Shown piece by piece: positions 10,432 to 44,213 of a stretch of 64,000 bases of DNA. The DNA comes from Ricordea florida (taxonomy: Eukaryota; Cnidaria; Anthozoa; Corallimorpharia; Ricordeidae): assembly GCA_949710005.1 (NCBI GenBank), contig OX453283.1:21328704-21392703 (forward strand), read 5' to 3'. Below the pieces are notes generated by a model, which saw only the letters and a list, made by a program, of their open reading frames with translations, was not told the origin of the DNA and ran no database searches. Within the stretch, counting starts at the first letter, position 1. Each line of letters begins with the position of its first letter. Position numbers and translations under genes: made by a program.

Positions 10432-13400
10432 TCATCTGCAGATAATGCTTTTTTTATTAACAGTTTTTGTGTAAAGATTATGTAGATCTGATCCAATTAA
10501 ATTTTGTAATCTCATTTGAGGATTTCCAGTGACTAAACAATCTTTAAAGTCATTATGTTTTATTTTATTCTTAACAACTGATTTCTTTGTTCCTTTATTC
10601 TTTTTTATCTCCTTACCATTATCCATTTTTATACTATATTGTTTAGCTCCTAAACCCACAAACTCTGTAGGTATCATTCCACCAAACTCATCTTTAAACA
10701 TTCCAATTACTTTTTTGTTTACCCCAGCCTCGATTCCAGATGGGTGGTCTTTAGGGTAATTACTAGTGTCAAACTTTTCTCTAACATCTGGACTTATATC
10801 TTTGTAGAAATCTGGAGTTTCTATTTCATATACAAGGCTGTCAGTATCAGTCATAAGTAATTTAGCCTTATCTCCATATTTCTTTTTAATATAATTATAA
10901 TGAAAATCATACATTATTTGTTTACTTCGATCTAAAATGCAAAACCCCACATAAATTGGTTTATTAAATCTTATTTTTATTTTCTTCATATTTACAGCAA
11001 CTAGATCTTCAGAAAAGATAGTAAAATAGTCAAAGTTTGGTTTTTTTATTAATTTTTCAGCTGATTTTTTATTATTAACTAATCTAACATCTATCCTTTT
11101 TCTCATATTTTCCATTGTTTTACCAAATACGGAGTTATTCATTAACTTGAAGAAGTCCTTTTCAAAATCATTAGCTGCTTGAGCTCTGAATTTAGTATTC
11201 AAATCAATGTATTGCTTTAGCCACGCAGACTCATTAAATTTAATGCCTTTATGAATTTTTGTTATTTCTAATCCCATACTTTCATAAAATTTTAAAGTTT
11301 CATGATAGACAACATACCTTTCCTTATCAAATAGGTTTGGTATTAATTTCTTAACTTTATTAACAGTAAGTTTGTCTGGGGCTAAAGGAAGATCTTTATC
11401 TTTATTATGAAGATTTTTTGGGTATTTCAAATCAACCATAACTATGCAGGGTATATCTCTCCAATTCTTAAGCTCCTCTTTAGTCATCCATTCAAATCCT
11501 TGTCTGGGCAGATTTCCGCTCATTCCTGCTCCATATAAGTTATTTGCATCAAGATATATAATATAGTTTTTAACTAGATTTTCTACAAAGTCTACCATAT
11601 ATGGATTGTTGGCTTTAGCATATCTTTTTGATATTTGAGCTACACCACCTCTAATACCTCTTTCAATCATAAGTAACATATTGACATCAGTAAACAGCTC
11701 CAATTTAACTTTGGTTAATTTTAACATTGCATCCCAAGATAGCCCTGGTGATGTAAAATAGTGAGCCGGATCTAAACCATAATTATTTTGACAAACATCT
11801 CTAAAGTTCTCAAATACATCCGCTAAAAGTAAAACATCCGTCTTGAGATATAAATCATGATATTCCCTCATTGATTTCATATCAAAAGCCTCAAATATTT
11901 TTTCAGCGTGTTGGTAATCATCATCGCTTATATCTTCATCATTTAATTTTGAATGAAATGCCTTCTTTGGTGGTAGTTTTGTTTCATTTAGTTTATTAAT
12001 ATCAGTAAAATCATCATAATTAAACACTCCTTTTCTCATCACTAAATATGTTTTATCACCAAATTCCTTTTTTGTTTCGGTTAGTTTATCATCTTTTGGA
12101 GAAAGACACCTTTTTTCAGATAGCTTGCAATTCTCACATTTTCCTCATTTTCCAATACTTTTATGCTCAATATCTTTTCCATCTTCTTTGTATCTTTTCA
12201 TACAATCCGGTGGTTTGCATGTCTTACACTTTCCACATTTGGTGAGATTATCAACTAAACCACTAAGTCCGCTCAACATAAATTTATAAGAATCAATGAA
12301 TCTTATCATTATATTAATGGGTTTACCTTCAACATCATTACCAATTAAAATTTTCTTTGAGAAACTAATATACTTTTCATTGGTATTAGCTAAACAACTT
12401 ATTTCACCTTTTGTTTTAGCAAGATTTTTAATAAATAAATGAGAATCATATCCTGACATATTATGTGCTATTACAGGGATGAAATTAGGAATCACATATC
12501 CTAGATTACACTTATTATGAGCGGCTCCTCTATATTTCCCCGTAAGATGACAATGATCTATTACTTTTTTATAATCTTTATTATTAGTTTCTGTAAATTT
12601 TCCTTCGCATATATGACAATGGGTTGCATTTTCATATTCTTTTTTAATTGTTTCTGTCGCTTTATTCCTATCATAGAATCTAAACTTTTCTTTTCTTTCT
12701 TCTATTATTTTATAAATTTTTCTAATATCTCTTTCTAAATATTCTACAAATATCTGTGCAACATCTTCATCATCTGATTTTGCGGTATATTGTACAATTT
12801 GATTAAAATCGGCAGGTAATAAACTTTCATCAAAACACTTTATATAATAACAGAATCCTGACGGTTTATGCTTCTGATATTTTTTAGTATAGCTTTTACT
12901 TTTATCCGGTGAACATGTATATATTGGTATTAAATTACTCTCAAAGTCTACATAAATAACAAATGGTGCCCTCATTTTATTTTTATAATTTTTGAATTTA
13001 ATAAATTTTGGACTTCCATCTTTATTCTTTTCCATATTGATTATAACTTCTCCATTTGAATCGCAGTATATTTTATGTTCATCTAAATATTCTTGTTTAT
13101 AGAATGAGTTGAAACATCTAAGGCAAAAATATTTTTTGTTTTTATTTTTATCACTTTCAGAGGATAAAAGCCTACTAATATCAGTTACCAAACAGTAGTG
13201 ATTTGTTTCATTATTAGATACTAAAATTAATGTTATAATTTTACAACTGCATATCTTACATTCCTGTTTGTTACAACCACATTTCTTACAGCTGCATTTC
13301 TCACATTCTTGTTTTATACAATCTTCTTTCTTACATTCTTGTTTTATACATTCTTTTTTCCTACATCCGCAATTATTACATTCTTGTTTTTTCTTACAAT

Positions 13401-14796: not shown

Positions 14797-15148
14797 TTTG
14801 TATACTATCTTTCTTCTTTTAAATAGTAATTTATTTATATTTCAAAAATCGATTTTTTTTGCCTGTGTCCTAGAAATATCACTGTATAAATCTCTGGTAA
14901 AATCTCTGATAAAATCTCTGGTAAAATCTCTGATTAAATTTTTTAAACCTAATCAGAAAATTAACTAGACAAATCTCTGAATAAATTCCTGTGTCCCAGA
15001 ACTATTATCTGTATAAATCTCTGGTAAAATCTCTGGTAAAATCTCTGGTAAAATCTCTGATTAAATTTTTTAAACCTAATCAGAAAATTAACTAGACAAA
15101 TCTCTGATTAAATTCCTGTGTCCCAGAACCGTAGTTTTCTCTCTCTCT
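14792..15148 (-). repeat. Right TIR of element 1
   Basis: Reverse complement of the left TIR, including both ~127-bp units. It runs into the first codons of the polymerase gene, so the polymerase and the left SAP-repeat gene have the same leader. Confidence 0.93.
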
Positions 15149-15153
15149 ACTAC
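15149..15153. repeat. Right target-site duplication of element 1
   Basis: ACTAC, the same five bases as at 320-324. Confidence 0.75.
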
Positions 15154-20671: not shown

Positions 20672-20674
20672 GTA

Positions 20675-27978: not shown

Positions 27979-28561
27979 AGTAGTATATTAGAGGGGTTTT
28001 ACTCACGCCCACGTTGTTGTTGTTGTTTTTACCCACACGTTGTTTTTTTTTTTTTTTACCCACGCTTCTTTGTGAATTTATTGATAAAGGGTGTAAATTT
28101 TACAACTACATACTTCTAGAAAATCTTCACAAAGGAATCCCCATAGTTTTCTAATTCTACAGTGCCTCTAGAAAATCTTCAGAAAAGAATCCCGATAATT
28201 TTCGAATTCTCTCACAACCTCTAGAAAATCTTCACAAAGGAATCCCGGAGGAAATTATTAATTTAATTGAAAAAGTTACTACTACTAGCGGTTTTACCCA
28301 CACCCACGTTGATGTTGTTGTTTTTACCCACACGTTGTTGTTTTTTTTTTACCCACGCACATGTTGTTTTTTGTTGGTAAACAGATTTTTTACAGAATTT
28401 TTGTGAGCTGGCTGTGCCTCAAAATCTTCGCCCCTACTCACTTCTTGATGTTAAAAAATGTTACCCAAAAATATACAGAAAAAATATCAGAGTGTTAATC
28501 AGATATTATAAATAAAAAATGATTTAAAGGTTTGAAAATGATTATAAATTAGAAATGGAAC
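27979..28561 (+). repeat. Left TIR of element 2
   Basis: Starts AGTAGTATATTAGAGGGG and matches the inverted right end except for two bases in a T-run. Internal plan: terminal block with ACCCACACGTTG repeats (to ~28073); two and a half ~52-bp units starting TCTAGAAAATCTTC (28115, 28167, 28220); a 43-bp copy of coding sequence (28247-28289); a second terminal-like block (~28289-28370); then a unique part to the ATG at 28555. Confidence 0.93.
28247..28289 (+). repeat. 43-bp coding fragment copied into the TIR
   Basis: Exact match to 28677-28719 inside the SAP-repeat gene (codons for EEIINLIEKVTTT). It is also present, inverted, in the right TIR. Confidence 0.85.
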
Positions 28562-29004
28562 AATTAAAAGATTTATATAATTATGAACTAAAAAGAATCG
28601 CGAAAGAGTTACAAATAAAAGGAAGATCAAAAATGAATAAAAAAGATTTTATTAATGAGTTTAAAAAATTTAAAGAGGAGGAAATTATTAATTTAATTGA
28701 AAAAGTTACTACTACTAGCATTTATATTTGTATTCATGGAAAACTTAAATATTTTTGTAAAGAATGCGGTGGATCACAAATATGCGAACATGCTAGAATT
28801 AAGTATGCTTGTAAAAAGTGTAGAGGATCGCAAGTATGCAAACACAATAAATATAAGTATCGTTGTAAAGAATGCGGCGGATCACAAATATGCGAACATG
28901 GTAAACAAAAACAACAATGTAAAGAATGCGGAGGATCGCAAATTTGCGAACATGGTAAGCAAAAAGCTTCTTGTAAGGAATGTAGAATGAAATTAAAAAA
29001 ATGA
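28555..29004 (+). CDS. SAP-like domain plus five CxH/CxxC repeats, 149 aa
   Basis: Homologue of the element 1 gene at 678 despite the unrelated TIR upstream. A SAP-like start (ELKRIAKELQIKGRSKMNKK) is followed by a Glu-rich linker and five 18-residue CxHx6CxxC units (CEHGKQKQQCKECGGSQ type). The unit number is the same as in element 1, while their order and Gln/Lys content have drifted. The start codon lies in the last bases of the TIR. Positions 28677-28719 are the source, or the copy, of the fragment in both TIRs. Confidence 0.82.
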   Translation: MEQLKDLYNYELKRIAKELQIKGRSKMNKKDFINEFKKFKEEEIINLIEKVTTTSIYICIHGKLKYFCKECGGSQICEHARIKYACKKCRGSQVCKHNKYKYRCKECGGSQICEHGKQKQQCKECGGSQICEHGKQKASCKECRMKLKK

Positions 29005-29010
29005 ATTATG

Positions 29011-29035
29011 ATTTAAAGATAAAAGTAAAATAAAA
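29011..29035 (+). promoter_or_regulatory. Leader of the 207-aa gene
   Basis: ATTTAAAGATAAAAGTAAAA just upstream of the ATG. An almost identical ~40-bp leader precedes the extra gene at 33888. Confidence 0.55.
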
Positions 29036-29659: not shown

Positions 29660-29672
29660 TCTTATGTAATTG

Positions 29673-29704
29673 TGTTACATAACTAAAGTAATAGTTATAT
29701 AACA
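29673..29704. terminator. Hairpin at a convergent junction
   Basis: TGTTACATAACT, an 8-base loop, then AGTTATATAACA (11 of 12 paired), between the genes ending at 29659 and 29735. Confidence 0.6.
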
Positions 29705-29734
29705 AAAAGACCTTAAGGACCAACCACGTCGAAA

Positions 29735-30370: not shown

Positions 30371-30419
30371 TTTGTTTTGATTACATAATATTCCTCTTTA
30401 GATTTCTATAATCAAAACA

Positions 30420-31958
30420 TTAACGAAATAAAAACCAAGCTATTGCACCGCCAACAACCATAAATACTATCAGATTATCTTCATGTTCCGACCGGAGGGA
30501 GGGTTGAGTTGATTTAATTGGATCTGTTTGTGTTGTTTCTGATGGTGGTTTGTTTTCGGTTTTATGTGGTAATAAAACTTTTGAAGATCCTAAGTTATGA
30601 CTTATTCCAACAGGTTTTGATTCAGTGTTTAGGGAATTATTCACTCCAAAATTCATATCATTACTAGCTTTCATAAGTTTGTTATTATATCCAACCACAC
30701 TTTCTGTATTGATTATCATATTACTAGGCATCAACCAAACACCAGGAGCAATAGCTAAATCAAGCCGTAATTTCGATTCTTGTACAGCTAATTGATATCT
30801 TTGTATTGAACTGGAAATATCATTCTCAATCACACTACTTTCAAATAAAGACAAGAATTCTTGTTGAGTCTCTATCGCTCCACCACCATTACCATAAATC
30901 GAATTTCTAGTGTTTACTTGTGCCCCTAATATGCAGTATACAAAAGCTTCAGCGGATCTATTCAATCTACCAAGTCCAGCTTTAGTGAGACCCTGTCCGC
31001 TTGTTGGGATAAACCAAGCATATTTGAAATCGGCAAAGTCATCGTTACGGATAAATGAAATGAGATTACCCTTTTCCTTTTTACCTCCTTCATCAGCGAA
31101 TTTACCGCCTTCACCAGGCCATTGATCCGCTTCAACATCATAATTTCTTACAATATGTACATTTTGATATCCCCCTCCTTTTCCATGATAACCAGAACCA
31201 TAATCAAGGAATATATCTCCTAATCCTGAATTTCTTCCACCTTTCCATCTAAAGTCAGAATTATTACTAACCCCAAATTCAGCACACAATCGTTTATATG
31301 CAACTTTACTATATGGATTATTATTTATCACAAAAGGTTGCTCATCAGGTAAAGGTAGTTTCATTTCATACAATATTCGTCTTATTGTAAAATACACATG
31401 AAACTTTATGAAACTACTCACTAGTTTAGGATAATTTAAACTTTCAAAAGGACTTATCCCACAGCCAGATGTAGCACACCAAACCGCAAAGTTAAGCTGT
31501 TGAGGCCAATAATTAATATCAGGATTATTCAACCATCTTCTACTTTGTTTTGCAGTATTGAATGTTACAACTTGGGATGTAAATATGTTTCTCATTTTTG
31601 CTGTGAATTTCTTCGTATTTGAAACGTATATATCTAGAAAGGTTAGCATTTTTGTTATATCAGTTGTAAAGTCATCAAAGTTAATAGCTGGTATAGGATA
31701 GATTTGATTTGTAATGGATAAACTTTTTGGAAATGAACCAACCTTAACTTTATTTTCTAACCCTAAATCTTGCCATAATAATGTTTTCAAATTAATAGGA
31801 AGATAATCAGTCCACGTTTTTCCAGTAGGATCATCATTTGACATAACTGCTGTCCCATTAACTTTCCATTTAATATATCCTCCATATGAATCATTCACAA
31901 ATGTAAATTTATCAAGGTTGGCGTTTGGGTATCTATTTTTAAAGTCTGTGAGTAACAT
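30420..31958 (-). CDS. Tail-anchored virion-like protein, 512 aa
   Basis: Close homologue of the 520-aa protein of element 1. The globular residues 1-430 are highly similar, including GCGISPFESLNYP and WPGEGGKFADEGGKK. The Pro/Thr linker (~440-490) differs in sequence and length. A C-terminal helix (VFMVVGGAIAWFLF) forms the anchor. This pattern of strong core conservation, loose linker and retained TM fits a virion protein displayed from a membrane. A CAGCAAAGCTG hairpin not found in element 1 sits in its leader (~31974). Confidence 0.85.
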   Translation of the reverse strand: MLLTDFKNRYPNANLDKFTFVNDSYGGYIKWKVNGTAVMSNDDPTGKTWTDYLPINLKTLLWQDLGLENKVKVGSFPKSLSITNQIYPIPAINFDDFTTDITKMLTFLDIYVSNTKKFTAKMRNIFTSQVVTFNTAKQSRRWLNNPDINYWPQQLNFAVWCATSGCGISPFESLNYPKLVSSFIKFHVYFTIRRILYEMKLPLPDEQPFVINNNPYSKVAYKRLCAEFGVSNNSDFRWKGGRNSGLGDIFLDYGSGYHGKGGGYQNVHIVRNYDVEADQWPGEGGKFADEGGKKEKGNLISFIRNDDFADFKYAWFIPTSGQGLTKAGLGRLNRSAEAFVYCILGAQVNTRNSIYGNGGGAIETQQEFLSLFESSVIENDISSSIQRYQLAVQESKLRLDLAIAPGVWLMPSNMIINTESVVGYNNKLMKASNDMNFGVNNSLNTESKPVGISHNLGSSKVLLPHKTENKPPSETTQTDPIKSTQPSLRSEHEDNLIVFMVVGGAIAWFLFR

Positions 31959-32114
31959 TTTATTCTTTATGTTTCAGCAAAGCTGGTCTTTAGATCTAGA
32001 ATAAAATGTAAAGTTAATTAATTTCTTATCACTCGTAGTGCGGGCCATCTTCGCTGACTTTTCTAATACCTACAAAACAATTATAACCCACATCAGTTCT
32101 CTCATATGAAATTT

Positions 32115-32773
32115 TTAATGTGCGGGAGTGATTAATTCTTTTAATAGATCTGCGCGAACTTCTTTCCTTATCTGAGACATGTTTAAGTTTTTTTCTGTAT
32201 CTTTCCTAAATTTTTGTCGAACTTCTAGTTTTAGTTTTTGAAACTTTTCCAACTCTGCTAAAATTATAGAAAATTCTTGGTCTGATATTGCATTATCTTT
32301 CAAAGCTTTTGAAACCAAGTCGTTAATGGTGTTTAATTTTGCTTTTGCTAGAGAAACTGTTTGTTCATGTTTACTAACTTTATGTGAAAGTCGTTTAGAA
32401 GCAGCACCGAATCCAACCGATATTACCCCACAAATACCCCCAACAGCTCCTAATGGTATACCAACAACAGCACCAAAACCAGTAAGGGAGGTTCCAAGTC
32501 CACTTGCAGATAGGATAACTGAAAACACTCCACTACTAACACTTATTTTTGTAAATATACCTCTTGCTCTATTGTATTTTTTCCTAACTTCCTCATAATG
32601 TTTAATTTCCTTCTCAAGATTTTGTAGTACTTCACATGATTTTTGTAGTCTGAAATTATTAGGATCACCATTCGTTGGTAATTGTGGATAAATCGAGCTT
32701 CCGATTTGCGGGGAGGGCTCTGCCCGAATTTGCTCGGACCGGCCACGCCGTAAATTCTATTGTAGTCATCCAT
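32115..32773 (-). pseudogene. Glycine-rich membrane/coiled-coil protein, frameshifted
   Basis: Homologue of the 200-aa protein at 3509. The first codons (32773 leftwards) are followed by a ~62-bp GC-rich insertion with an ATAAAT/GTAAAT flank repeat. 62 is not a multiple of three, so the downstream frame is lost. The conserved remainder resumes in another frame (open 32528-32115, IFTKISVSSG...SVILSASGLG region). Nothing else in the gene is damaged, so the insertion looks like the inactivating event. A promoter of TTTAAAGAT type is still present upstream. Confidence 0.75.
32695..32756 (+). repeat. 62-bp GC-rich palindromic insertion
   Basis: Contains GGGGAGGGCTCTGCCCGAAT. It is absent from the element 1 gene and flanked by a 6-bp near-repeat (ATAAAT/GTAAAT). 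Its core matches the copies at ~35711 and ~40355. Confidence 0.65.
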
Positions 32774-32811
32774 ATTGTATTTTACTGATCAACATGATAT
32801 CTTTAAATTTG

Positions 32812-33789
32812 TTACTTTCTCTTCTTCTTTATACTTTCCACAAAATATAGAACCACAGCCATTATCAACAACCATGCGTTCTTCCCCAAAAATCCAATAA
32901 CCTCACCCGCTGTTTTGAAAAGAAAGCTTACAATCGCACCAACCATTCCTGGTAATATTTCACTGAGTTTCTTTCCAATAGCTTTAAACCCATTACCAAC
33001 TCCCCTACCCAAAGTAGATAAACCCCTTGAAAGATTAGAAACTATAACTCCAATAATGACACCTACAGCACTCACAACTGCGAATAATGTAAAACCATAC
33101 TTTTTGAAAATGTATTTTACGCGATCGCGCAATGACATTCTATTTTGTATTCTTTCTTCTTCATCCTCTAAACGAGCCAAATCTTCTTCATTATTAACAA
33201 TTTCTCTTTCATCAGCTTCAATTTGACTACTTTCCTCTGGTGTAATATTAGTTTTATCTCTTTTAATTTTTATATTTTCTTTTAGTTTATCAATTAAACC
33301 TTTTTTCTTTGTTTTTTCATTATTAATTGAATCCAAAATCTCTTCTGCTGAAGGACCAAGGCTATTTCTTATTGTTTTTGTATCCATTACTTTTTTGCTT
33401 ACATTACCATATCTGTCATAAAAATTTTTCCACTTAACTTTATTAGGATCATCACGCATTATTCCAACTTGTAATTGACCAAAATCATCATACCTAAAAT
33501 CAAAGTTTGCTTTCGCTTTGGGGTATTTATTTTTAATCTCTTGCCAGGCTTTATCTTTTTTTCTTTGTATCTCCTCAATATCTTCTCCTGATAATTTTGT
33601 ATATCCTTTTTTGGTTTTTGGTTTTGCACCGCCAAATGAAGTTTCTGCTACCGCATCATAATCAGGGTTAATTATTTTAGTTGTTGATGATATTGGATCC
33701 ATTTCCATATTTTCTCTATCAAAATCATCGTCTAGATCAGTTGGTTCAAAGTCTGGTATTTCTTTGGGTATATCTCCTCCTTCTGCCAT
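32812..33789 (-). CDS. Acidic/coiled-coil protein with C-terminal membrane domain, 325 aa
   Basis: Homologue of the 328-aa protein at 4543. An acidic, variable N-terminus (1-75) precedes a conserved AKANFDFRYDDFGQLQVGIM block, a long charged coiled coil (~150-225) and an almost unchanged hydrophobic C-terminus: FAVVSAVGVIIGVIVSNL, an amphipathic GLSTLGRGVGNGFKAIGKKL stretch, and two further hydrophobic helices. Strong conservation of the membrane part against a free N-terminus suggests that the membrane activity is the selected function. Confidence 0.85.
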   Translation of the reverse strand: MAEGGDIPKEIPDFEPTDLDDDFDRENMEMDPISSTTKIINPDYDAVAETSFGGAKPKTKKGYTKLSGEDIEEIQRKKDKAWQEIKNKYPKAKANFDFRYDDFGQLQVGIMRDDPNKVKWKNFYDRYGNVSKKVMDTKTIRNSLGPSAEEILDSINNEKTKKKGLIDKLKENIKIKRDKTNITPEESSQIEADEREIVNNEEDLARLEDEEERIQNRMSLRDRVKYIFKKYGFTLFAVVSAVGVIIGVIVSNLSRGLSTLGRGVGNGFKAIGKKLSEILPGMVGAIVSFLFKTAGEVIGFLGKNAWLLIMAVVLYFVESIKKKRK

Positions 33790-33821
33790 GATTTTTTACT
33801 CATCAGTAAGAAATCTTTAGA
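33790..33821 (-). promoter_or_regulatory. Promoter motif of the 325-aa gene
   Basis: TCTAAAGATTTCTTACTGAT followed by GAGTAAAAAATC and the ATG, identical but for one base to the element 1 copy at 5530-5561. Confidence 0.65.
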
Positions 33822-33860
33822 CCTAAAAGTTATGTTTATAAATTATAAAAATGAATTATG

Positions 33861-33887
33861 ATTTAAAGATAAGAAAGTAAAATAAAA
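33861..33887 (+). promoter_or_regulatory. Leader of the extra gene
   Basis: ATTTAAAGATAAGAAAGTAA before the ATG; a near copy of the leader at 29011. Confidence 0.55.
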
Positions 33888-34696
33888 ATGTCTAATGAAA
33901 ATACACAATTAACAAAAGTTAACAATTATATTCCCAAACAACGTATGATTTTTTCTGATCCAATTTCAGGAGAAATTCCTGGTAGTAAACCAAAGATTGA
34001 ATTTAAACGAATTAATATTTTTACAAAAAATGAAGATGGAACCGAAGGAGAACTTGTTATTTCAACTGAACGCTTGTATTCTTTTGGAGTTTCCGAAAAT
34101 AAGAGCCTGGAAACCAATAAAATTATAGGATATAATTTTCCTTTGTGTTTATGGAGTGGTGATAAACCCGCACCCGAAGAGGAAAAATGGATTGATACTT
34201 TTAACGAAATAGTAGATTGTTGTATTGATCATTTGGTAGATAATAGAGAAAAAATTGACAGGTTTGAATTGGAAAGAAAAGATCTTACTAAGACCAAGGG
34301 TGGTTTAAATCCTCTTTATTGGAAAATGGAAAAAATTAAAGATGAAAAAAACAAAACTTTTATGCGTAAAGTTCCTGGACGAGGACCAACACTATATGCA
34401 AAATTAATTTACTCAAAAAACAAGACAAATATCTTACCAAATTTTATAATAAAAAAGATGGTGAATTAATAAAAAAAGAAGATTTAATGAATAAAGGTTG
34501 CCATGCAGAATGCGCAATCAAAATTGAATCAATATTTATTGGTGGTTGTATTTCTCTTCAGGTAAAGCTTTATGAGGCGCTTGTTGAACCAAACATTGAA
34601 ATGAAAAGATTATTAGTCCGTCCAAAATCTAATCCCGAATTAATTATTTCTGAAGGCAAATCAGCCTCTGATGTTTTGGAGGATGACCTAGATTAA
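33888..34696 (+). pseudogene. OB-fold ssDNA-binding-protein-like gene, frameshifted
   Basis: Present only in element 2, between the 325-aa and 135-aa genes. The first open part is 193 residues (33888-34469). A shift within the A-run at 34415-34420 moves the frame, and the second part (open through 34487-34696) continues with CAIKIESIFIGGCISLQVKL and ends in an acidic tail (SASDVLEDDLD). That ending and the tail recall T7-gp2.5-like ssDNA-binding proteins of large DNA viruses (DUF2738-type); this is from memory and tentative. The leader copies that of the 207-aa gene and a perfect hairpin follows, so it looks like a self-contained cargo cassette. Recoding at the A-run is a less likely alternative. 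Confidence 0.55.
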
Positions 34697-34712
34697 GATA
34701 CTGGAAGCTTTA

Positions 34713-34744
34713 TGTTATGTAACCCAATTACTGGTTACATAACA
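34713..34744. terminator. Perfect 12-bp hairpin after the extra gene
   Basis: TGTTATGTAACC, loop CAATTACT, GGTTACATAACA. The loop is one base different from that of the hairpin at 1772. It lies between convergent genes. Confidence 0.65.
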
Positions 34745-34764
34745 AAATAATGTAATATTTTACG

Positions 34765-35172
34765 TTAAAATAATTTACTAACTGTGTACCCCAAAGCTAA
34801 CATTCCTCCTCCCACGTATAACATTTCCCCCGTCTTTTGATTGTCACTTGGCCTATAATAATCTGAAAATTTTGGTTCGTGCATTTCACTATATATTTCA
34901 AAAGATTGATTTGTCGTTGAAATATTTTTTGAAGCCTGGTATTTTTCATCTTTTTGTTTCATTTTCCAATCAATGAGATTCTGCCTTTTTTCTTGGTATT
35001 CTGCGTAATCTTTTTGGTATTTTTCTAATGCCTTATCGTGTCGTATTTTCTCTGTATCGGTTTTATCTCCTGAGAGATATTTTGCAAGGTATGAACCACC
35101 AACAAAGGCAGATGCATTTAACACAGCTCCTCCAATCATCATTGCTATTGCAGCCATGTTTCTTCGCTTCAC
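34765..35172 (-). CDS. Two-TM virion-like protein, 135 aa
   Basis: Homologue of the 130-aa protein at 5602: N-terminal hydrophobic helix, long charged helix (RHDKALEKYQKDYAEYQEKR), YYRPSDNQKTGEM, C-terminal hydrophobic helix. The annotated start adds five residues (MKRRN) over the element 1 protein. The inner Met at residue 6 aligns with the element 1 start and is preferred, because the extra codons come from a GC-rich insertion in the spacer (35158-35222). Confidence 0.83.
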   Translation of the reverse strand: MKRRNMAAIAMMIGGAVLNASAFVGGSYLAKYLSGDKTDTEKIRHDKALEKYQKDYAEYQEKRQNLIDWKMKQKDEKYQASKNISTTNQSFEIYSEMHEPKFSDYYRPSDNQKTGEMLYVGGGMLALGYTVSKLF

Positions 35173-35222
35173 TCAGGTCTATAAATCTTTATTTTGAGGT
35201 TCCTCCTTCGCTTGCTTCGCTC
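35158..35222. repeat. GC-rich insertion in the 135/72-aa gene spacer
   Basis: TTCGCTTCACTCAGG and CTTCGCTTGCTTCGCTCAG blocks of about 50 bp, absent at the matching 2-nt spacer of element 1. Confidence 0.55.
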
Positions 35223-35439
35223 AGTTCGGTAAAATCTTTTGATCCTCTAAATATGTTTTTAGGTACATACTACCTGACAGTACAGCTACCCATTTTACAT
35301 AATTTGTAATACTTGAGGAGGGATCGTTCATAAATGATTCTTTCATAACCTTTTTAGCCACATATCCAACTCCAGCTGCTAATCCAATAAGTACTGCGGA
35401 ATCAGTAACAGTTTTCACAAGTTTGTTTTCGTTTGACAT
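35221..35439 (-). CDS. Small two-TM protein, 72 aa
   Basis: Almost identical to the element 1 protein at 5997 (only a few substitutions over the whole length), with both hydrophobic helices kept (AVLIGLAAGVGYVAKKV and YVKWVAVLSGSMYL). Such conservation in a 72-residue protein argues that it is real and under selection. The spacer to the next gene has grown by insertion, so translation coupling is not strictly required. Confidence 0.82.
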   Translation of the reverse strand: MSNENKLVKTVTDSAVLIGLAAGVGYVAKKVMKESFMNDPSSSITNYVKWVAVLSGSMYLKTYLEDQKILPN

Positions 35440-35471
35440 AATTTTTACTACATCAGTAAGAAATCTTTAGA
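35440..35471 (-). promoter_or_regulatory. Promoter motif of the 72-aa gene
   Basis: TCTAAAGATTTCTTACTGAT, then GTAGTAAAAATT and the ATG. Confidence 0.6.
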
Positions 35472-35493
35472 TCCTTTTATCCTCCGGTCGGGA

Positions 35494-35979
35494 TTATATC
35501 ATTCCTATTTTCAGCGGATCTGGCCCTGCGGATATTGGTTGTGTTTTTGGGAGAGTAATATTTGAAGGACAATCGGGTATCCTATTTTTATTTTCAGTGT
35601 AAACGGTACTGGATTTTTCCCGGTATCTCATAAAAAGATCAAATGCTGTAAAACCCAATCCAACAATGGATAATACAGTTGTAAAAGATAACTCTGGAAG
35701 CCATGATTTCGCTGAGCGGGGGGGCTTTGCCCGATTGGATTCAACTGTTTCTTCTTCATTTTTCTCTTCTTCCCGTTTAATTTTTTGCTCCCTTTTCATC
35801 TCCCTAGCTAATGCTTCTTTCGCTTTTTTGTTATATTCCGCTAATTTCTTACCAGCAGCGACTTTTTTTGGATCTTTCTCCCTCTTTTTTGAATCTTTCT
35901 TTTCAGGCGTGGGATCCATTGTAATTTGTTCCGCAACTTCTGTTCGTTCAGTTTGGTCAGACATTATTTTAAATATCAT
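35494..35979 (-). CDS. Lysine-rich single-TM protein, 161 aa
   Basis: Counterpart of the 153-aa protein at 6263, sharing KKREKDPKKVAAGKKLAEYN and the TM block FTTVLSIVGLGFTAFDLFM. It has an extra ~9 residues (NRAKPPRSA) encoded by an in-frame GC-rich palindrome at ~35711-35738. The initial MIFK residues are probably untranslated: the Met at residue 5 (MSDQTE) aligns with the element 1 start (MTDQTE) and follows the promoter motif at the usual distance. Confidence 0.8.
   Translation of the reverse strand: MIFKIMSDQTERTEVAEQITMDPTPEKKDSKKREKDPKKVAAGKKLAEYNKKAKEALAREMKREQKIKREEEKNEEETVESNRAKPPRSAKSWLPELSFTTVLSIVGLGFTAFDLFMRYREKSSTVYTENKNRIPDCPSNITLPKTQPISAGPDPLKIGMI
35711..35738 (+). repeat. 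GC-rich palindromic insertion, in frame
   Basis: CGCTGAGCGGGGGGGCTTTG then CCCGATTG, inserted between bases that are adjacent in element 1. The net gain is a multiple of three. Confidence 0.65.
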
Positions 35980-36000
35980 TAAGAAATCTTTAAATCATGC

Positions 36001-36573
36001 TTAGTAAACAGTATCAGGCCCGCTTGCATCTTGCTTAGTAGACTGCTCAGTTGTACTTGAAATATCTTGATTTTTATGCTCAGTTGTACTTGTAAATTGT
36101 TGATTTTTGTCCTCCGGGGCCCTTTGGGTCTTGAATTTAACGTGTTTAGCAACCTGGAATAGCCCGCTAGCAAGTGCTGCCAATCTTCCTGCTTTCAATG
36201 CTAAGAGTCCTACAATGTTTGTTAGTTCACGATTAACCAAATCATCATTCTTCAAATCATCACAAAGAGCTTCTATATCATCCACAGGAACCATGTAAGA
36301 AATAACTTTAGAAACTAATTGAAGAGATGAATCTACTAATCCACCACTAATTTTCTTACCTAATACTGCTTGATATCTATTATAATATTTTTCTACATCT
36401 TTTACAGATAATTTTTTTACATCTCCCAAACTCATATCAACTCCTAAATATTCTTTTGTAGTGCCCAGGGATGCGAGAATAGCTAGTGATTCTTGTTTAA
36501 TTTCAAGATCCCCAGATTTTACATTGTCTTTTACCTCAGGCTGTTCTTCTATATAATCTTCAACTTCTGTCAT
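36001..36573 (-). CDS. Conserved structural-block protein, 190 aa
   Basis: Counterpart of the 192-aa protein at 6790. The core (ILASLGTTKEYLGVDMSLGD, KKISGGLVDSSLQL, NIVGLLALKAGRLAALASGL) is nearly unchanged. The C-terminal tail is variable and includes a short internal repeat (TSTTEHKNQ/SSTTEQSTKQ). No domain assigned; conservation and position suggest a virion or assembly role. Confidence 0.8.
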   Translation of the reverse strand: MTEVEDYIEEQPEVKDNVKSGDLEIKQESLAILASLGTTKEYLGVDMSLGDVKKLSVKDVEKYYNRYQAVLGKKISGGLVDSSLQLVSKVISYMVPVDDIEALCDDLKNDDLVNRELTNIVGLLALKAGRLAALASGLFQVAKHVKFKTQRAPEDKNQQFTSTTEHKNQDISSTTEQSTKQDASGPDTVY

Positions 36574-36604
36574 CTTATAATTTTCTAATAATACAAAGAT
36601 TCTT

Positions 36605-37231
36605 TTAAATCACCTCAGGGATCTCCAAATAACATTGAAATGGAAATCTTAAACATAAACATAGTCTAGAATATTTTTCTTTTTTTAAAATTTCCACAAA
36701 TTTTTTACATGTTTCAGAGTCCAAATCACCCCCATAATCTTCGAAAAGCATCTTCATACCTTTCTGCGATGGATTATGGAATGAAACAACGCAGGCAACA
36801 TTTTCACGGAAAGGTTTTGCTATCGATGTTAATTGTTGAGTGAGAACCCACATTGATAATCCATGATGCCTTCCGGAGAATGCTAAATCTATAAATTTGT
36901 TCGATCGTTTCTTCAGATCATTCGAAACAGCACAATCATCTAAAATTATTAGTGTATTTGTTCCCGAGAATAAAGTTTGACAATCAGTTAATAACTCATT
37001 AATCTCATCAATGTTACTAGCATCAGGTGATAATACAAAGAAACGTTTATCTCCTCGAGCAAAGTCGCGGTAAGTTTTGTTTTTAGAATAAGTTGGGCAT
37101 ATTAAAACAATGAATTCAAACAATTTTCGAAATGGTCCTCGTAATTGATCTATTATGTACTTTGTTTTCCCGCAATTTGTTGGGCCAGTTATTATACAAT
37201 GAAAAGGAATTTTATCTCGTAATTCTTCCAT
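36605..37231 (-). CDS. A32-like genome-packaging ATPase, 208 aa
   Basis: Walker A GPTNCGKT is at 16-23 and Walker B LIILDD at 94-99, with the GRHHGLSMWVLTQQ segment downstream. Nearly identical to the element 1 enzyme over the first 150 residues, diverging toward the C-terminus, where three residues are added. The frame and catalytic residues are intact. It follows the capsid gene by 30 bp, fitting a capsid-ATPase transcription unit. Confidence 0.93.
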   Translation of the reverse strand: MEELRDKIPFHCIITGPTNCGKTKYIIDQLRGPFRKLFEFIVLICPTYSKNKTYRDFARGDKRFFVLSPDASNIDEINELLTDCQTLFSGTNTLIILDDCAVSNDLKKRSNKFIDLAFSGRHHGLSMWVLTQQLTSIAKPFRENVACVVSFHNPSQKGMKMLFEDYGGDLDSETCKKFVEILKKEKYSRLCLCLRFPFQCYLEIPEVI

Positions 37232-37261
37232 CTTTTCTTTTAACTAAGTTCTTCCCTTTGG

Positions 37262-38515
37262 TCAGTACATGATTGATCTTAAGTTTGAATTCATAACCTC
37301 CATTAATGCATCAGCCACAACAAACATGTAACAAGTCATAATACCAGAACCAATAGCTATTCTTTTAATTTCTATTTTTATACCGTCTTGTGCGTTGTTT
37401 AAGGCTAAACCCCCTCCATGAATGCTATTATCTGGATGTGTTCTCAAATCGATCCACAGAGCAAACTTATTACCATAAAAATCCTTTTCTTTTACCGACC
37501 AGCGGGAGGAACCTGACCATCGGGAGGAATCACTGAAGCGTTTCTTTATTGACTCCCAAAGATCTGACGGTACCATTCCCTTTGAGTAAAAACGATTTGG
37601 AACGCCATTAACATCAACATTGATTGAGGTGATACCTGGATTGAAAAAATTCTCAGAGTCTCTGGCTCCTCCAACGTATGGTATCATAAACAAACATAAT
37701 ATCCCTGTAATTGACCTTCTAGGTAGATTAATATGCTGGTTTATAACACTATCAGTAGGTCTGGATATGGTGAAAGTTTTGTGTAGAGTGACATTCTCAT
37801 AAAAGAATCCTTTACCAACCTGATAAGCTGCTTGTGCCTCACGAGCTAAGTATTCGCTTGATATACAAGAATATTCCAACTCAAGGTTTGTGATTTTGTA
37901 AGTTGGAGTCTTTGTTGTGTCTGAATAAACAACAATATCCCGAACTGGAGCTAGAGTAATCTCAAATATTAGTTGATGATCTAACGCTTTTGGGTAGAAA
38001 ACCCCATGATCATTGAGAATAGGATGATTTAGTGCGATGTGGTACTTGGTGTTATGTACTACTGCAAGTGCTACTTCTTTTGCGTCTGTGTCTACCTTAT
38101 CACCCGCATTTGACCTTAGCTTCCTCATGTTCACAGAAGAAATACCTTGCCTTAATCTATCCTCACGTTCTTCATCTGATAAGAATAAGTCATGGTATGT
38201 TTTAAATACATCGTATCTTTGAGTATCCTGTAGTGTTTCACCTCCAAAAAGAACCTTGAGTCTGGATACGAGGTTACTACCTACATTATTCACTAGGGTG
38301 TTATTTTCATGCCCCTCAACAGTCAATTTAAATACTAGGTATACGCTTCCTGGTACAATCACTAAATTTTCAGAAAGTTTTGGAATATTTATGTAAAGCG
38401 TTTCTCCAGGATTGGCCGATGAGGGATTGAGAGTAATTCTATTCAATGTTGATTCCGCTTTCAAACCTAGTGGTACTCTCGGAATCCTGTTTGGATTAAT
38501 TTTTTCAGACGTCAT
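37262..38515 (-). CDS. Major capsid protein (double jelly-roll type, inferred), 417 aa
   Basis: Close homologue of the 414-aa protein at 8077. Conserved landmarks are GGETLQDTQRYDVFKTY, HPILNDHGVFYPKAL, AAYQVGKGFFYENVTLHKTF and INLPRRSITGILCLF. The most variable stretch is near residues 335-350, where a short duplicated Trp/Ser segment (SRWSGSSRWS) occurs; a surface loop would tolerate that. No premature stop. Confidence 0.85.
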   Translation of the reverse strand: MTSEKINPNRIPRVPLGLKAESTLNRITLNPSSANPGETLYINIPKLSENLVIVPGSVYLVFKLTVEGHENNTLVNNVGSNLVSRLKVLFGGETLQDTQRYDVFKTYHDLFLSDEEREDRLRQGISSVNMRKLRSNAGDKVDTDAKEVALAVVHNTKYHIALNHPILNDHGVFYPKALDHQLIFEITLAPVRDIVVYSDTTKTPTYKITNLELEYSCISSEYLAREAQAAYQVGKGFFYENVTLHKTFTISRPTDSVINQHINLPRRSITGILCLFMIPYVGGARDSENFFNPGITSINVDVNGVPNRFYSKGMVPSDLWESIKKRFSDSSRWSGSSRWSVKEKDFYGNKFALWIDLRTHPDNSIHGGGLALNNAQDGIKIEIKRIAIGSGIMTCYMFVVADALMEVMNSNLRSIMY

Positions 38516-38548
38516 ATTGATTTATAAGATACTTTGGTTAATCTTTAA
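38516..38548. promoter_or_regulatory. Bidirectional capsid/integrase promoter
   Basis: 33 bp with GATTTATAAGATACTTTGG and ATCTTTAAA; matches the element 1 spacer apart from single-base changes. Confidence 0.65.
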
Positions 38549-39532
38549 ATGAGTTCAGACTTATCGAAAATATATTATTCAACTGACGGATATTGGAAAG
38601 GATATTCTGCAATTCCTAAATTAGCTGAAAAGGCGGCAGTAAGTGAAGATGTAGCAAAACAATGGTTAGAGAAACAAGCAATATGGCAAATATATCTACA
38701 AGCTCCAAAGTATATTCCTAGACCTCACTGGACTGTGGATAAACCTAATCAGATTCACCAAGCAGATTTATTATTTTTGCCGCATGATAGAGTTGGAAGA
38801 AAAACATATAAATACGCATTAGTTGTGGTTGATGTTGCCTCTAGATACAAAGATGCTGAACCATTAACCTCAAAAGAAAGTAGAGAAATTTCAAATGCTT
38901 TTGAAAAAATATATTCGAGAAAATTAAAATATCCTAAAACATTAATGGTTGATCCTGGAAAAGAATTTATGGGTGAGGTTTCCAAACTTATGAATTATCA
39001 TAATGTTAAAATACAGAGAAGTGAAGCTGGAAATCATAGAGCCCAAGCATTTGTTGAAAGAGCAAACAGAATATTAGGCGAAAGATTATTTAGTCATCAA
39101 TATGCGCAAGAAATGATTAGTGATGAAAGGTCTAGAGTATGGGTAAAAAGATTACCAGATATTTTGAAAACTTTGAATAATACACCAACTAGAATAACAG
39201 GTAAAGAACCTGATAAGGCTATAAAACTTAAAGAGGTTGATATTAAACCTAAAAATTACCAACGCGAGGTGGGGGTTGATGAGGTTCGGCTACCAATTGA
39301 GGTTAAAGTTAGATATTTATTATCTCCTGGCGAACTTGAGGGTGGTGAAAAAAGGAGGGCTACAGATCCTATTTGGAGTATCAAAGTTTATGATATTTCA
39401 AGTAGTAAGATTTCTCCTAATCAACCGGTTTTATATTTTTTAAAAGATGGGCCTAGACGTGGATTTGTAAGGGAAGAACTTCAAGTTGTCCCCTATGATA
39501 CTGAGTTGCCACCTTCTTCTGTTTTGAAATGA
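38549..39532 (+). CDS. Retrovirus-type integrase (rve), 327 aa
   Basis: Catalytic Asp73, Asp135 and Glu170 are present in the same contexts as the element 1 enzyme (HQADLLFLP, MVDPGKEFMG, RAQAFVERANR). Long stretches are identical, so the two integrases are recent relatives although their TIRs share no sequence except the initial AG. The stop codon lies one base from the polymerase stop on the other strand, so the two transcripts must overlap or share an end signal. Confidence 0.95.
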   Translation: MSSDLSKIYYSTDGYWKGYSAIPKLAEKAAVSEDVAKQWLEKQAIWQIYLQAPKYIPRPHWTVDKPNQIHQADLLFLPHDRVGRKTYKYALVVVDVASRYKDAEPLTSKESREISNAFEKIYSRKLKYPKTLMVDPGKEFMGEVSKLMNYHNVKIQRSEAGNHRAQAFVERANRILGERLFSHQYAQEMISDERSRVWVKRLPDILKTLNNTPTRITGKEPDKAIKLKEVDIKPKNYQREVGVDEVRLPIEVKVRYLLSPGELEGGEKRRATDPIWSIKVYDISSSKISPNQPVLYFLKDGPRRGFVREELQVVPYDTELPPSSVLK

Positions 39533-39533
39533 T

Positions 39534-42500: not shown

Positions 42501-44213
42501 TTTTTCTGAGCTGCTCATTGTTGGAACACATTTTTTACCTTTACAAATTACTTGTGTTTTTCCTCCTGTACATGTATTGTCATTCAAATGTCTATTATAA
42601 TTATCATGTCTGTTAAATCTTTGTTCACATCCATGACATTCCCAACTATTAGTCAACATCGGTAAATCTTTTATGTAAAAACAATGGTCATTATGAATTC
42701 CTGCATCCAAAGTTGGTAATTGTTTTTTGATTTTACCTTTACCATAAACCAATACCCACGTTTTTTGGTCTTCTTTTGGCTCAAATATCCTAATGTTAAT
42801 ATTAAAAAACTTTGAGATATCTTCAAGTTCAATAAGATCTGTTCCTTTTATATCTTCTTCTTTCAGATTTGGTTTACCATAAAATTCTTGAGCTAGTTTT
42901 AAAGCTAATTTTTTTATTCTTTCAGCGGGTCTATTTTTCTCATCAAGATAGTTCCTAAACACGGCCAGGGTATTCCAAAAACACATTTTGTTACCATAAT
43001 TATCAAGTGCATGAATAGATTTCTTTTTGTGTAGCCAATCTGGTAAAGGCCCACAACCCATTAAAGTTTCGTTTGTATGAATTAATTTTACATGAACTTC
43101 ATTAAACACAACTCTTCCTTGATATACACCTTGTTTTTTTACAACTTCAGTAGGCGGAAGATACGCGTTACTCCACACTTGTGTGTTCTCCAAATCTAAT
43201 CTTTTTATTTCACATTGTTCAATATACTCCTCAATTTCTTTTAATGTTTTTAAAGTTCCTTTTCCATGAATTGTTTTGTGATACTCGGCTATCTCTCCTT
43301 TTCCGCGATGAATGCTGGATTTGAAACCATATACAACCCTTGTTCTCATCTGTATCTCCGGTCTTATTCTATCGATAATTATTTGCGATATGTCATTATT
43401 AAGATCCGCATTTATTACAATGTTATTTTGACCCACCATCTCGTCAGGTTCTCTTCCAAAAGGAATAAATTTAAAATTTGTTGGAGGTTTTAGTTTATTT
43501 TTCTTATCTTTATTTTCTACTGTTTTAGTTTTATTTTGTGCTTGATTATTAGCCTTTTTTCTAGCTTGTGGAAACGGTTTTATGATTTTTTTATTTGTTA
43601 GATTTTTTAAAGATTCATAAAACTTTTTTCTATCTTCCACTTTGTAATTTTTAATTATATTCCTTTTCTTTTTATTAGGTAAATTTTCGTTAGTTGTAAT
43701 TGTAACCTCTTCATAAAACTTTTTTCTATCTTCCACTTTGTAGTTTTTGAATATTTTTTTGGGTGTGGATTTTTTAGAGTGTTTGTTATCCTTAACCGAT
43801 TCAAAAAACTTTATTCTTTCTGACACTTTTGAATTTTTTCTGGGGGGTGGTATAGGTCTTTCGTTCTGTTTAGGAATATTTTTTACAGGGTTTGGGATAG
43901 GTCTTTCCTTCTGTTTAGGAATATTTTTTGTAGGGTTTGGGATAGATCTTTCTTTCTGTTTAGTCATATTTTTATTTTCATTTTTGGTTAAAGTTGGAGG
44001 CCGAATGGGTGGTGGTGTGCCTGGGCGGGGGTTGGGTGGGGGGCTACCCGGGGGAGTACCTAGTTGTTCTTCCGCATTATCATACATTTCAACAAGTTCA
44101 GGAATTTTTCGCAATTCTTTTAAAAGGTCACTTTTTTTCCTCAATTTTGACCTGCCTTTAATATTATATTCTTGTGCAATTTCTTTCAGTTTATCAACAG
44201 TAAGTCGTTCCAT
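39534..44213 (-). CDS. Family B DNA polymerase (Polinton type, second lineage), 1559 aa
   Basis: Intact. SAP-like start (LKEIAQEYNIKGRSKLRKK); Pro-rich TPPGSP region with IPNPxKNIPKQxER repeats (~50-130); repeated YKVEDRKKFYE units; a Cys/His protease-like region (NKMCFWNTLA ... HNDHCFYIKDL); a C2H2-like finger (WECHGCEQRFNRHDNYNRHL); a nuclease-like FQFYGCKWHGC...VWECE region; ExoI WDSEAM, ExoII FNCGKYDFN, ExoIII YNQGD; motif A DANSLY (~1074), motif B KLKGNAFYGK (~1314), motif C YSDTDS (1412-1417). A Cys-rich finger lies at ~1010-1050. The nuclease insert and palm motifs differ from the element 1 enzyme. A GC-rich palindrome is inserted in frame near residue 1285. Confidence 0.93.
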   Translation of the reverse strand: MERLTVDKLKEIAQEYNIKGRSKLRKKSDLLKELRKIPELVEMYDNAEEQLGTPPGSPPPNPRPGTPPPIRPPTLTKNENKNMTKQKERSIPNPTKNIPKQKERPIPNPVKNIPKQNERPIPPPRKNSKVSERIKFFESVKDNKHSKKSTPKKIFKNYKVEDRKKFYEEVTITTNENLPNKKKRNIIKNYKVEDRKKFYESLKNLTNKKIIKPFPQARKKANNQAQNKTKTVENKDKKNKLKPPTNFKFIPFGREPDEMVGQNNIVINADLNNDISQIIIDRIRPEIQMRTRVVYGFKSSIHRGKGEIAEYHKTIHGKGTLKTLKEIEEYIEQCEIKRLDLENTQVWSNAYLPPTEVVKKQGVYQGRVVFNEVHVKLIHTNETLMGCGPLPDWLHKKKSIHALDNYGNKMCFWNTLAVFRNYLDEKNRPAERIKKLALKLAQEFYGKPNLKEEDIKGTDLIELEDISKFFNINIRIFEPKEDQKTWVLVYGKGKIKKQLPTLDAGIHNDHCFYIKDLPMLTNSWECHGCEQRFNRHDNYNRHLNDNTCTGGKTQVICKGKKCVPTMSSSEKIFYGGNTQFSYVGCRWIEKQSELIGKHIHHALCGHGGERCVKDGEKEIFLVDGYEPVTNTVFQFYGCKWHGCPCSTFDKIRYNETMRTEQVIKSLGYNLVSVWECENPELKYVNFKKKFFHYPYFIVWDSEAMQPKQPEKVTEDLTFINKHIPISIAISDNLSKKPTCFVNNNPEELIKDFVKDLERRQKYIVKNVREDYTLPDEDSIPKKVKEMHEEWCNQVPVLGFNCGKYDFNMIKINFVNSFTEMEGTLNVAKKENKYMYLKNPRFKFLDMINYLAPGLSFDKWCKANNCEQQKLFFPYQFLDSYDKLSHIGPVKYEDFYSDLKKKITISPQEYEEYKNEMKKRGCITMKDWLIEYNQGDVIPFVEAVEKTRAKYFCDEIDMLKDAVSIPGISMRYVLNKAIKNNKGKCDLYSPGDPCYCVCSVNCKKPKSGKGKCKKCFTIRKECTKCSKNKAYDLLKTGMVGGQAQVFVRWAEAGKSFIRSNNYKNPKPCKTIRGYDANSLYLYVSGLEMPCGKEKYFEVKNPTDPEYIKKNCNDILTDKLFGFCQVDIHTPDNLLEKFEEMPPLYVVDTVPENLIPDHMKEYQKATGRKTIKGSLKLLSVTRAKEILLYTPKIKWYLNHGLVITAVHKILEYQPGKPFEWFPSEVSNARRDGDIEVLLEKLSKAFDENKIDDVVTLTNELNQFPDILTFIEENTEKEDRFTSWEGLARSDDNHRKVLIEKLKTKYKGCKELADTNKLKGNAFYGKMIENKQEHKNTSYTQDEDDVNMAIRSPFFVDMEQINETYEIIKRKRSVEITTPYQCGIAVYQLSKLRMLEFYYDFIDYYFDKSDFELVYSDTDSYYFAYSEEDLDNLVKPELRDEYFREGKQKFLSTSKYHDRTPGLFKKEFEGIRIIALSPKCYYADDGKGKTKFSCKGTIQHQNDMTWDRYYEALKGSIDRVKNTGFRVNKNEIVTHTQNKLGLNGYYDKRRVEEDGIHTKPLY
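40350..40380 (-). repeat. GC-rich palindrome inside the polymerase gene
   Basis: On the coding strand CTTCGTGGGAGGGCTTAGCC then CGATCCG, encoding part of WEGLARSDD in frame. Same core as the copies at ~32712 and ~35720, in the opposite orientation. Confidence 0.6.

What the first reader, a model, noticed from the sequence alone, without database searches (positions are those of the whole stretch)
10432..44213. Two sister proviruses with the same capsid chassis but different polymerases and TIRs
Integrase, ATPase, capsid and at least six small genes are close homologues in the same order. The polymerases belong to different lineages: an endonuclease-VII-like HNH insert and TDTDS in element 1, a WHGC-type nuclease-like region and YSDTDS in element 2. 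The TIRs are unrelated. Polymerase and TIR thus seem to travel as one replication module, as expected if the polymerase recognises its own ends in protein-primed replication. The co-exchange is inference.
Basis: partly seen in the sequence, partly recalled or inferred. Interest (0 to 1): 0.85.

Follow-up and report, generated by a model that had tools for sequence, protein, structure and literature searches.

The report
Polymerase swaps between virus-like elements
Two virus-like elements in an animal genome share a capsid but carry different DNA polymerases, and among further copies in the same genome the outermost DNA ends go with the polymerase and not with the capsid, so replication enzyme and ends behave as one exchangeable part.

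Summary
E1 (325-15148) and E2 (27979-44787) share most of a virion/integrase chassis (integrase 89%, ATPase 89%, MCP 81% aa identity) but have polymerases of two lineages and TIRs with little more than chance similarity. They are not sisters: each chassis has closer relatives elsewhere. I tested the interpretation on 22 copies (E1, E2, 20 from the window's own genome). Capsid and polymerase trees conflict (AU p 4e-9, 1e-35), and polymerase families lie on the capsid tree as if dealt at random (10 changes; shuffles 9.9). L039, L040 and L043 combine E2's capsid type with E1's polymerase and terminus; L054, capsid 99% like E1, has another polymerase and terminus. In the 18 copies with a placed tip, the outer 34 nt follow the polymerase (rho 0.85), not the capsid (0.13). 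Only the outer TIR behaves so; the inner ~60 nt follow both weakly. E1 is a recombinant with its switch inside the integrase gene (about 9667-9814). E2's two TIRs hold 43 nt of its own left-end gene, a trace of end-to-end copying. Polymerase/capsid exchange is in print; I found no report of co-travelling termini. That the polymerase recognises its own ends is inferred, not shown.

The parts
325..677 (+). E1 left TIR (353 nt), outer tip at 325; TSD ACTAC at 320-324
   Evidence: inverted repeats, read by eye, genome search
14797..15148 (-). E1 right TIR, 99% identical to the left one; TSD ACTAC at 15149-15153
678..1109 (+). E1 left-end gene: Rho_N/SAP-like head and zinc-type repeats
   Evidence: Rho_N 26.8 bits, cut-off 24.9
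1807..9321 (-). E1 virion chassis: g3 to g10, packaging ATPase (7416-8033), MCP (8077-9321)
   Evidence: ORFs; Pox_A32 and Capsid_N; MCP model double jelly-roll
9356..10342 (+). E1 rve integrase; recombination switch at about 9667-9814
   Evidence: PF00665 37.4 bits; informative-site switch
10432..14796 (-). E1 polymerase (a-type), two open pieces 12145-14796 and 10432-12042 separated by one in-frame stop
   Evidence: relatives
27979..28554 (+). E2 left TIR; TSD CCATC at 27974-27978
44214..44787 (-). E2 right TIR; TSD CCATC at 44788-44792
28247..28289 (+). 43-nt exact copy of codons 41-55 of E2's left-end gene (28677-28719) inside the left TIR
44479..44521 (-). the same 43 nt inside the right TIR
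28555..29004 (+). E2 left-end gene: Rho_N-like head and zinc-type repeats
   Evidence: Rho_N 22.4 bits, below the cut-off of 24.9; 61% identical to E1's
30420..38515 (-). E2 virion chassis: g3 to MCP (37262-38515), ATPase 36605-37231; two + strand genes inside at 33888-34696
38549..39532 (+). E2 rve integrase; weaker switch near 39186
   Evidence: PF00665 37.5 bits
39534..44213 (-). E2 polymerase (b-type), one open frame of 1559 aa

Best explanation
E1 and E2 belong to one large resident population of Polinton-type proviruses that exchanges its right arm. Step 1 (shown for E1, weaker for E2): recombination between co-resident elements in or beside the well-conserved integrase gene joins the virion genes and integrase start of one element to the integrase end, polymerase and right TIR of another. 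Step 2 (outcome shown, process inferred): the two ends are made alike again, and the outermost DNA that belongs to the polymerase is found at both ends, while the inner ~60 nt, the leader of both terminal genes, can keep the chassis version. Step 3 (inferred): this is so because a protein-primed polymerase that carries its own primer domain needs its cognate terminus; chimaeras with a mismatched tip are lost or converted. The exchangeable replication part would be the polymerase plus its terminal ~30-50 nt.
For: Conflict of capsid and polymerase trees in 22 copies: AU p 3.9e-9, 1.5e-35, 2.7e-6; polymerase family changes on the capsid tree 10, shuffled mean 9.9. Outer TIR follows polymerase given capsid (partial 0.41, p 0.0005, 14 representatives) and not capsid given polymerase (0.00, p 0.48). 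Outer 34 nt: rho 0.85 with polymerase, 0.13 with capsid, 18 copies; without six copies chosen after their genes had been seen, partial still 0.86, p 0.0003, 12 copies. 18 facing pairs of E1-type TIR, one of them around L043, which has an E2-type capsid. Switch inside the integrase of E1: 155:6 to 4:45 informative sites. 43 nt of the left gene in both E2 TIRs. None of 14 pairs with same capsid and different polymerase family has a tip identity above 0.56. Literature: Polinton pPolBs carry a terminal-protein domain (PMC11071308, abstract passage and one section); replication origins of phi29 are recognised by the polymerase/terminal-protein pair (PMC3480470, passages).
Against: Recognition of the ends was not tested. 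PolB and right TIR are neighbours, so linkage alone explains the right end. The left tip was seen for few copies (E1, E2, L043); polymerase types of the other 17 E1-type TIR pairs are unknown. Outer similarity without shared polymerase occurs in 2 of 13 same-capsid pairs (L047-L051, L043-L047) and 6 of 64 pairs with both different. Tips were placed with a motif that I picked by eye, and 4 of 22 copies could not be placed (L045, L046, L051, L053), among them the only other b-type copy. The E2 43-nt trace runs from left to right, opposite to what spreading of an incoming right tip needs. TIRs of the two b-type copies (E2, L046) share nothing detectable.
Confidence: 0.75

Rival explanations
1. 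Plain linkage and end homogenisation: the right TIR travels with the polymerase because it is its neighbour, and a neutral end-copying process then makes the left tip equal. No recognition of ends by the polymerase is involved.
For: PolB lies between integrase and right TIR; breakpoints lie at the integrase; end-to-end copying is visible in E2; the inner TIR shows that parts of both sources can survive.
Against: If copying went either way at random, some same-capsid copies with different polymerases should keep a common tip; 0 of 14 pairs do, although independent events are fewer than pairs. Tips are kept within a polymerase family where the rest of the TIR is not alignable or differs in length (for example L039; L050 and L055).
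Confidence: 0.3
2. TIRs simply evolve fast, and the difference between E1 and E2 is unrelated to the polymerase.
For: TIRs change length and repeat content; simulated neutral divergence of 0.8-1.0 gives TIRs as unlike as those of E1 and E2 in 25 and 129 of 200 runs.
Against: At the core dS level (0.65) only 1 of 200 runs does. Copies with unlike capsids share outer TIRs when they share the polymerase (8 of 10 pairs), which fast divergence does not explain.
Confidence: 0.05
3. The chimaeras arose by recombination or gene conversion between integrated copies in the host chromosomes (or by misassembly) and never replicated as units.
For: Many similar copies in one genome. E1's polymerase is interrupted. 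L045 has another, inverted element beside it.
Against: E1 and E2 each have matching TSDs and nearly identical TIR pairs. Facing E1-type TIRs recur in 18 pairs, 17 of them 12.5-17.0 kb apart. E2's polymerase frame is open over 1559 aa.
Confidence: 0.15

Closest known systems
Adintoviruses with mixed Alpha/Beta hexon-PolB pairings (PMC11071296, passages read)
   Same: Capsid and PolB clades are re-paired (AB and BA besides AA and BB).
   Different: The passages read do not mention whether terminal repeats go with PolB; membership of E1/E2 in that group was not tested.
Polinton-like viruses of cryptophytes (PMC12220804, passages read)
   Same: MCP and polymerase phylogenies are incongruent; many copies with TIRs in one genome.
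   Different: In the passages read TIRs are used for completeness and recent mobilisation, not compared with polymerase type.
EMALEs, endogenous mavirus-like virophages (PMC8547959, passages and one section read)
   Same: Virion and replication modules recombine; truncated elements regained TIRs.
   Different: There the replaced enzymes include unrelated primase/helicase types; here distant homologues of one polymerase kind are exchanged, with tips that follow them.
Polinton pPolB with terminal-protein and vOTU domains (PMC11071308, passages and one section read)
   Same: Large PolBs with a long N-terminal region; primer and polymerase in one gene would explain why enzyme and ends go together.
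   Different: TP and vOTU domains were not modelled here; these polymerases add a Rho_N/SAP-like head that resembles that of the left-end gene.

Membership tests
Polinton/Maverick | retroviral-type (rve) integrase | tested here: met
   PF00665 37.4 and 37.5 bits, cut-off 32.6
[quoted passage not shown]
   No Pfam polymerase hit for either; one relative is named DNA polymerase by its source (P0129); catalytic motifs recalled, not tested; the structure model of E1's C-terminal piece was too poor (pLDDT 47)
Polinton/Maverick | packaging ATPase | tested here: met
   Pox_A32 47.6 bits, cut-off 22.8, for E1; E2's is 89% identical
Polinton/Maverick | double jelly-roll major capsid protein | tested here: met
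   Capsid_N 24 bits at the cut-off of 24 for E1, 19.1 below it for E2; E1 model pLDDT 81, best PDB match iridovirus SGIV capsid E 1.5e-15, TM 0.58, also PBCV-1 and mavirus
Polinton/Maverick | long TIRs and short target-site duplication | tested here: met
   TIRs 353 and 576 nt; 5-bp TSDs read by eye; 5-6 bp is given for PLVs in PMC12220804
Polinton/Maverick | Ulp1/adenain-type maturation protease | tested here: inconclusive
   No protease family in Pfam scans of 20 proteins; not every small ORF was scanned
Polinton/Maverick | minor capsid (penton) protein | not tested
   g3 (520 aa) has no Pfam match and was not modelled
Adintovirus | PolB and hexon recognisable against Alpha/Beta references; integrase chromodomain | not tested
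   Reference sequences were not fetched; the defining paper (PMC8502044) is not held

The most novel reading that the evidence does not exclude
In this population the unit of replication identity is the polymerase plus its terminal ~30-50 nt. Capsid and polymerase are re-paired as freely as at random, but whenever a new polymerase comes in, its tip takes over both ends, while the inner leader can stay with the chassis. The TIR would thus be a two-part structure: an outer origin owned by the polymerase and an inner promoter/leader that can be owned by the chassis.
Probability: 0.5. Interest if true: 0.8.

Novelty: new variant of a known kind. Interest (0 to 1): 0.7.

Why it matters
Exchange of polymerases among Polinton-type viruses is known from trees. 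Here one genome holds enough recombinants to see how it is done: where the crossover lies, which DNA comes along, and how a linear genome regains two matching ends. It makes the assumed fit between a protein-primed polymerase and its ends testable by comparison within an animal genome, and it warns that classifications by polymerase and by capsid will disagree.

Tried and rejected
Viral contigs (IMG/VR): four scans with one ATPase, the MCP alignment and both polymerase alignments gave no relative or two distant ones; the one scan of prokaryote genomes gave three polymerase loci in MAG contigs, probably misbinned. Linking database proteins by equal contig length gave the first hint (E2's MCP nested among MCPs linked to a-type polymerases) but linked only 19 of 120 listed MCPs, 14 of them on contigs over 100 kb where the link is ambiguous, so it is secondary.

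Idea that the Rho_N head stays with the ends while the polymerase body is swapped: across the listed database proteins a- and b-type heads are more alike than the bodies, but in the own-genome copies heads follow neither side clearly (partial 0.08 with polymerase, p 0.32; 0.21 with capsid, p 0.04); left open. Idea that the integrase travels with the polymerase: mostly not; it tracks the capsid in five of five bins and the polymerase in one (p 0.02). Idea that zinc gene and g2 came with a foreign end: not supported, their dS (0.72, 0.81) is like that of the core. The model of E1's C-terminal polymerase piece was too poor to use. Searches of b-type and E1-type polymerase places genome-wide did not complete.

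Full report
What is there. E1 runs from 325 to 15148 and E2 from 27979 to 44787; each has TIRs and a 5-bp target-site duplication (ACTAC, CCATC, TSDs read by eye). Both read left to right: TIR, a zinc-repeat gene with a Rho_N/SAP-like head, small genes, packaging ATPase, MCP, rve integrase, polymerase, TIR. E1's MCP models as a double jelly-roll (pLDDT 81). The TIRs end about at the start codons of the two terminal genes, the left zinc gene and, on the other strand, the polymerase.

Are the polymerases really different? Core proteins (g3 to INT without g5) are 55-96% identical, with dS of 0.50-0.78 except g8 (0.32), but the polymerases match only in patches (24-26% in the longer ones; 22% by profile), and each has much closer relatives (66% P0121; 86% P0241). 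They can hardly have split when the chassis did. Zinc gene and g2 have the dS of the core (0.72, 0.81), so these left genes seem to have stayed with the chassis; g5 (dS 1.79, moved) may not have.

E1 against E2 cannot settle the TIR question. Their TIRs are hardly more alike than chance (local score 20, reached by 25 of 500 shuffles), but neutral divergence at 0.8-1.0 per site often gives the same (25 and 129 of 200 runs; at 0.65, 1 of 200).

A larger sample. The window's own genome (G000, 538 Mb, 48 contigs) holds at least 122 integrase copies at 88-100% to E1's, a lower bound since 122 of 5802 candidates were scored. From that list I took 20 copies, each a stretch of about 9 kb from MCP to beyond the polymerase (L036-L055); with E1 and E2 that makes 22. 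Six (L036-L041) were picked after I had seen the capsid and polymerase identities of their 4-kb loci, the other 14 from the list alone; TIRs were unknown for all. The host was not identified here; named relatives of E1's polymerase come from the sea anemones Exaiptasia and Nematostella.

Capsid and polymerase are uncoupled. E2's capsid group is L039, L040, L043, L047, L051, L053 (91-92% to E2). Of these, L039, L040 and L043 carry E1's polymerase family (92-94% in the C-terminal piece), L051 and L053 another, L047 a third, E2 itself the b-type. L054 has E1's capsid at 99% and a polymerase at 68%. AU tests reject congruence in three comparisons (p 3.9e-9, 1.5e-35, 2.7e-6); the groups were named after seeing the identity tables, which the test does not allow for. 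On 16 non-redundant copies polymerase family changes 10 times on the capsid tree, as often as with shuffled labels (mean 9.9; 228 of 300 shuffles at or below). Without the six preselected copies it is 9 changes against 9.1 (199 of 300; 14 copies). Rank correlation of polymerase with capsid identity is 0.13 over all a-type pairs and 0.16-0.19 over representatives; among 12 copies without the six it is 0.43, falling to 0.25 when near-identical companions are dropped.

The termini go with the polymerase. I split the sequence upstream of the polymerase start (placed in 19 of 22 copies) into outer (beyond 75 nt) and inner (62 nt). On 14 representatives outer similarity follows polymerase given capsid (partial 0.41, p 0.0005) and not capsid given polymerase (0.00, p 0.48); inner similarity follows both about equally (0.29, p 0.05; 0.28, p 0.0125). 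With a cut-off at the 99th percentile of shuffles, outer similarity is found in 8 of 10 pairs with same polymerase/different capsid, 4 of 4 with both same, 2 of 13 with same capsid/different polymerase and 6 of 64 with both different; inner similarity in 6 of 10, 3 of 4, 7 of 13 and 20 of 64. The outer exceptions involve L047, L052, and L037 with L046. Start codons of L039, L046 and L047 were moved by 6-18 nt.

The tips themselves, the outer 34 nt, could be placed in 18 of 22 copies, E2 by its known end and the others by a motif that I chose by eye. They follow the polymerase at rho 0.85 against 0.13 for capsid (partial 0.86, p 0.0002; capsid given polymerase -0.21). On 12 representatives without E2 the partial is 0.77 (p 0.0002); without the six preselected copies it is 0.86 (12 copies, p 0.0003). 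In these tests polymerase identity between E2 and the a-types was set to 0.25. Family tips are shared across capsids: the E1 type in E1, L037 and L040; a second type in L036, L048 and L052. A genome-wide search with E1's TIR gave 59 matches (40 of 795 candidates scored), among them 18 facing pairs 12.5-31.5 kb apart (median 15.4 kb), so left and right tips agree there; one pair is L043's, an E2-type capsid with E1-type ends at both sides. The polymerases of most other pairs are unknown.

The inner leader can differ. The 68 nt before the start codon are 97% identical between E1 and L054 (same capsid, different polymerase) and 80-83% between E1 and L042/L049/L050/L055 (capsids 89-91%, other polymerase), but have no listed match to L037 or L043, which share E1's outer TIR and polymerase family. 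L040 scores just above the shuffle cut-off (22 against 21). So E1's TIR looks composite. Over all pairs this chassis link is weak, as the numbers above show.

Where the exchange happens. DNA identity between E1 and L054 is 87-100% per 100 nt through the MCP and the first 300 nt of the integrase, then 84-92%, then drops at the integrase end; between E1 and L040 it is low in the MCP and high in the polymerase. Informative sites switch from L054/L045-like (155:6) to L040/L039/L043-like (4:45) at about 9667-9814, inside the integrase (Fisher 2e-34; these copies are proxies, not the true parents). E2 shows a weaker switch near 39186 (252:56 to 15:29). Over 18 copies the integrase stays mostly with the capsid, so crossovers lie within or beyond it.

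How the ends come to match. E2's TIR contains, at both ends, an exact 43-nt copy of codons 41-55 of its own zinc gene, just before a second copy of the terminal repeat unit. Left-gene DNA in the right TIR, about 16 kb away, is strong evidence that sequence is copied from end to end. This copy went from left to right, opposite to what is needed to spread an incoming right tip; I presume that both directions occur. TIR regeneration was also noted in EMALEs (PMC8547959, passages). In phi29 the polymerase with its terminal protein recognises the origins (PMC3480470, passages), and Polinton pPolBs are reported to carry a terminal-protein domain (PMC11071308). I infer, without test, that the same explains why the polymerase's tip wins: none of 14 same-capsid/different-polymerase pairs has a tip identity above 0.56, though these pairs are not independent events.

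Prior work. Mixed capsid/polymerase pairings in adintoviruses (PMC11071296) and incongruent trees in cryptophyte PLVs (PMC12220804) are in print. Seven paper searches were made. In their listings and in the passages read I saw no report that termini follow the polymerase. The library is open-access only, and two likely relevant papers (PMC10748475, PMC8502044) are not held, so this is no proof of absence.

Noticed in passing
33888-34469: Gene of E2 only, with DUF2738 (PF10927, 141 bits, cut-off 23); E1 has nothing between g6 and g7.
   Followed up: no
28247-28289: The 43-nt zinc-gene piece in E2's TIR also matches 22 other places in the genome (21 at 100%, one at 95%), presumably zinc genes of other copies.
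   Followed up: partly
4122-4523 and 29735-30370: Gene g5 sits at different places in E1 and E2 and is far more diverged (dS 1.79) than its neighbours.
   Followed up: partly
12042-12145: E1's polymerase frame is open on both sides of one in-frame stop.
   Followed up: partly
32115-32773: g4, one frame in E1, is split in two frames in E2.
   Followed up: no
20675-22339: Nested inverted repeats of 392 and 156 nt (96-99%), probably another mobile element.
   Followed up: no
22449-23243 and 59504-60407: A dispersed repeat, 89% identical in several stretches, about 37 kb apart.
   Followed up: no
58346-58801 and 61751-62031: Tandem arrays with periods of 57 and about 46 nt.
   Followed up: no
L045: A second a-type polymerase stretch lies inverted next to this copy, so two elements are adjacent.
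   Followed up: no
L003, L004: Contigs filed in bacterial MAGs (Muriicola, Alphaproteobacteria) encode distant relatives of E1's polymerase, in L003 with an integrase; probably misbinned eukaryotic elements.
   Followed up: no
678-780, 14700-14796, 28555-28680, 44100-44213: Both terminal genes of both elements start with a Rho_N/SAP-like head; in listed database proteins such heads are more alike between the two polymerase types than the bodies are.
   Followed up: partly
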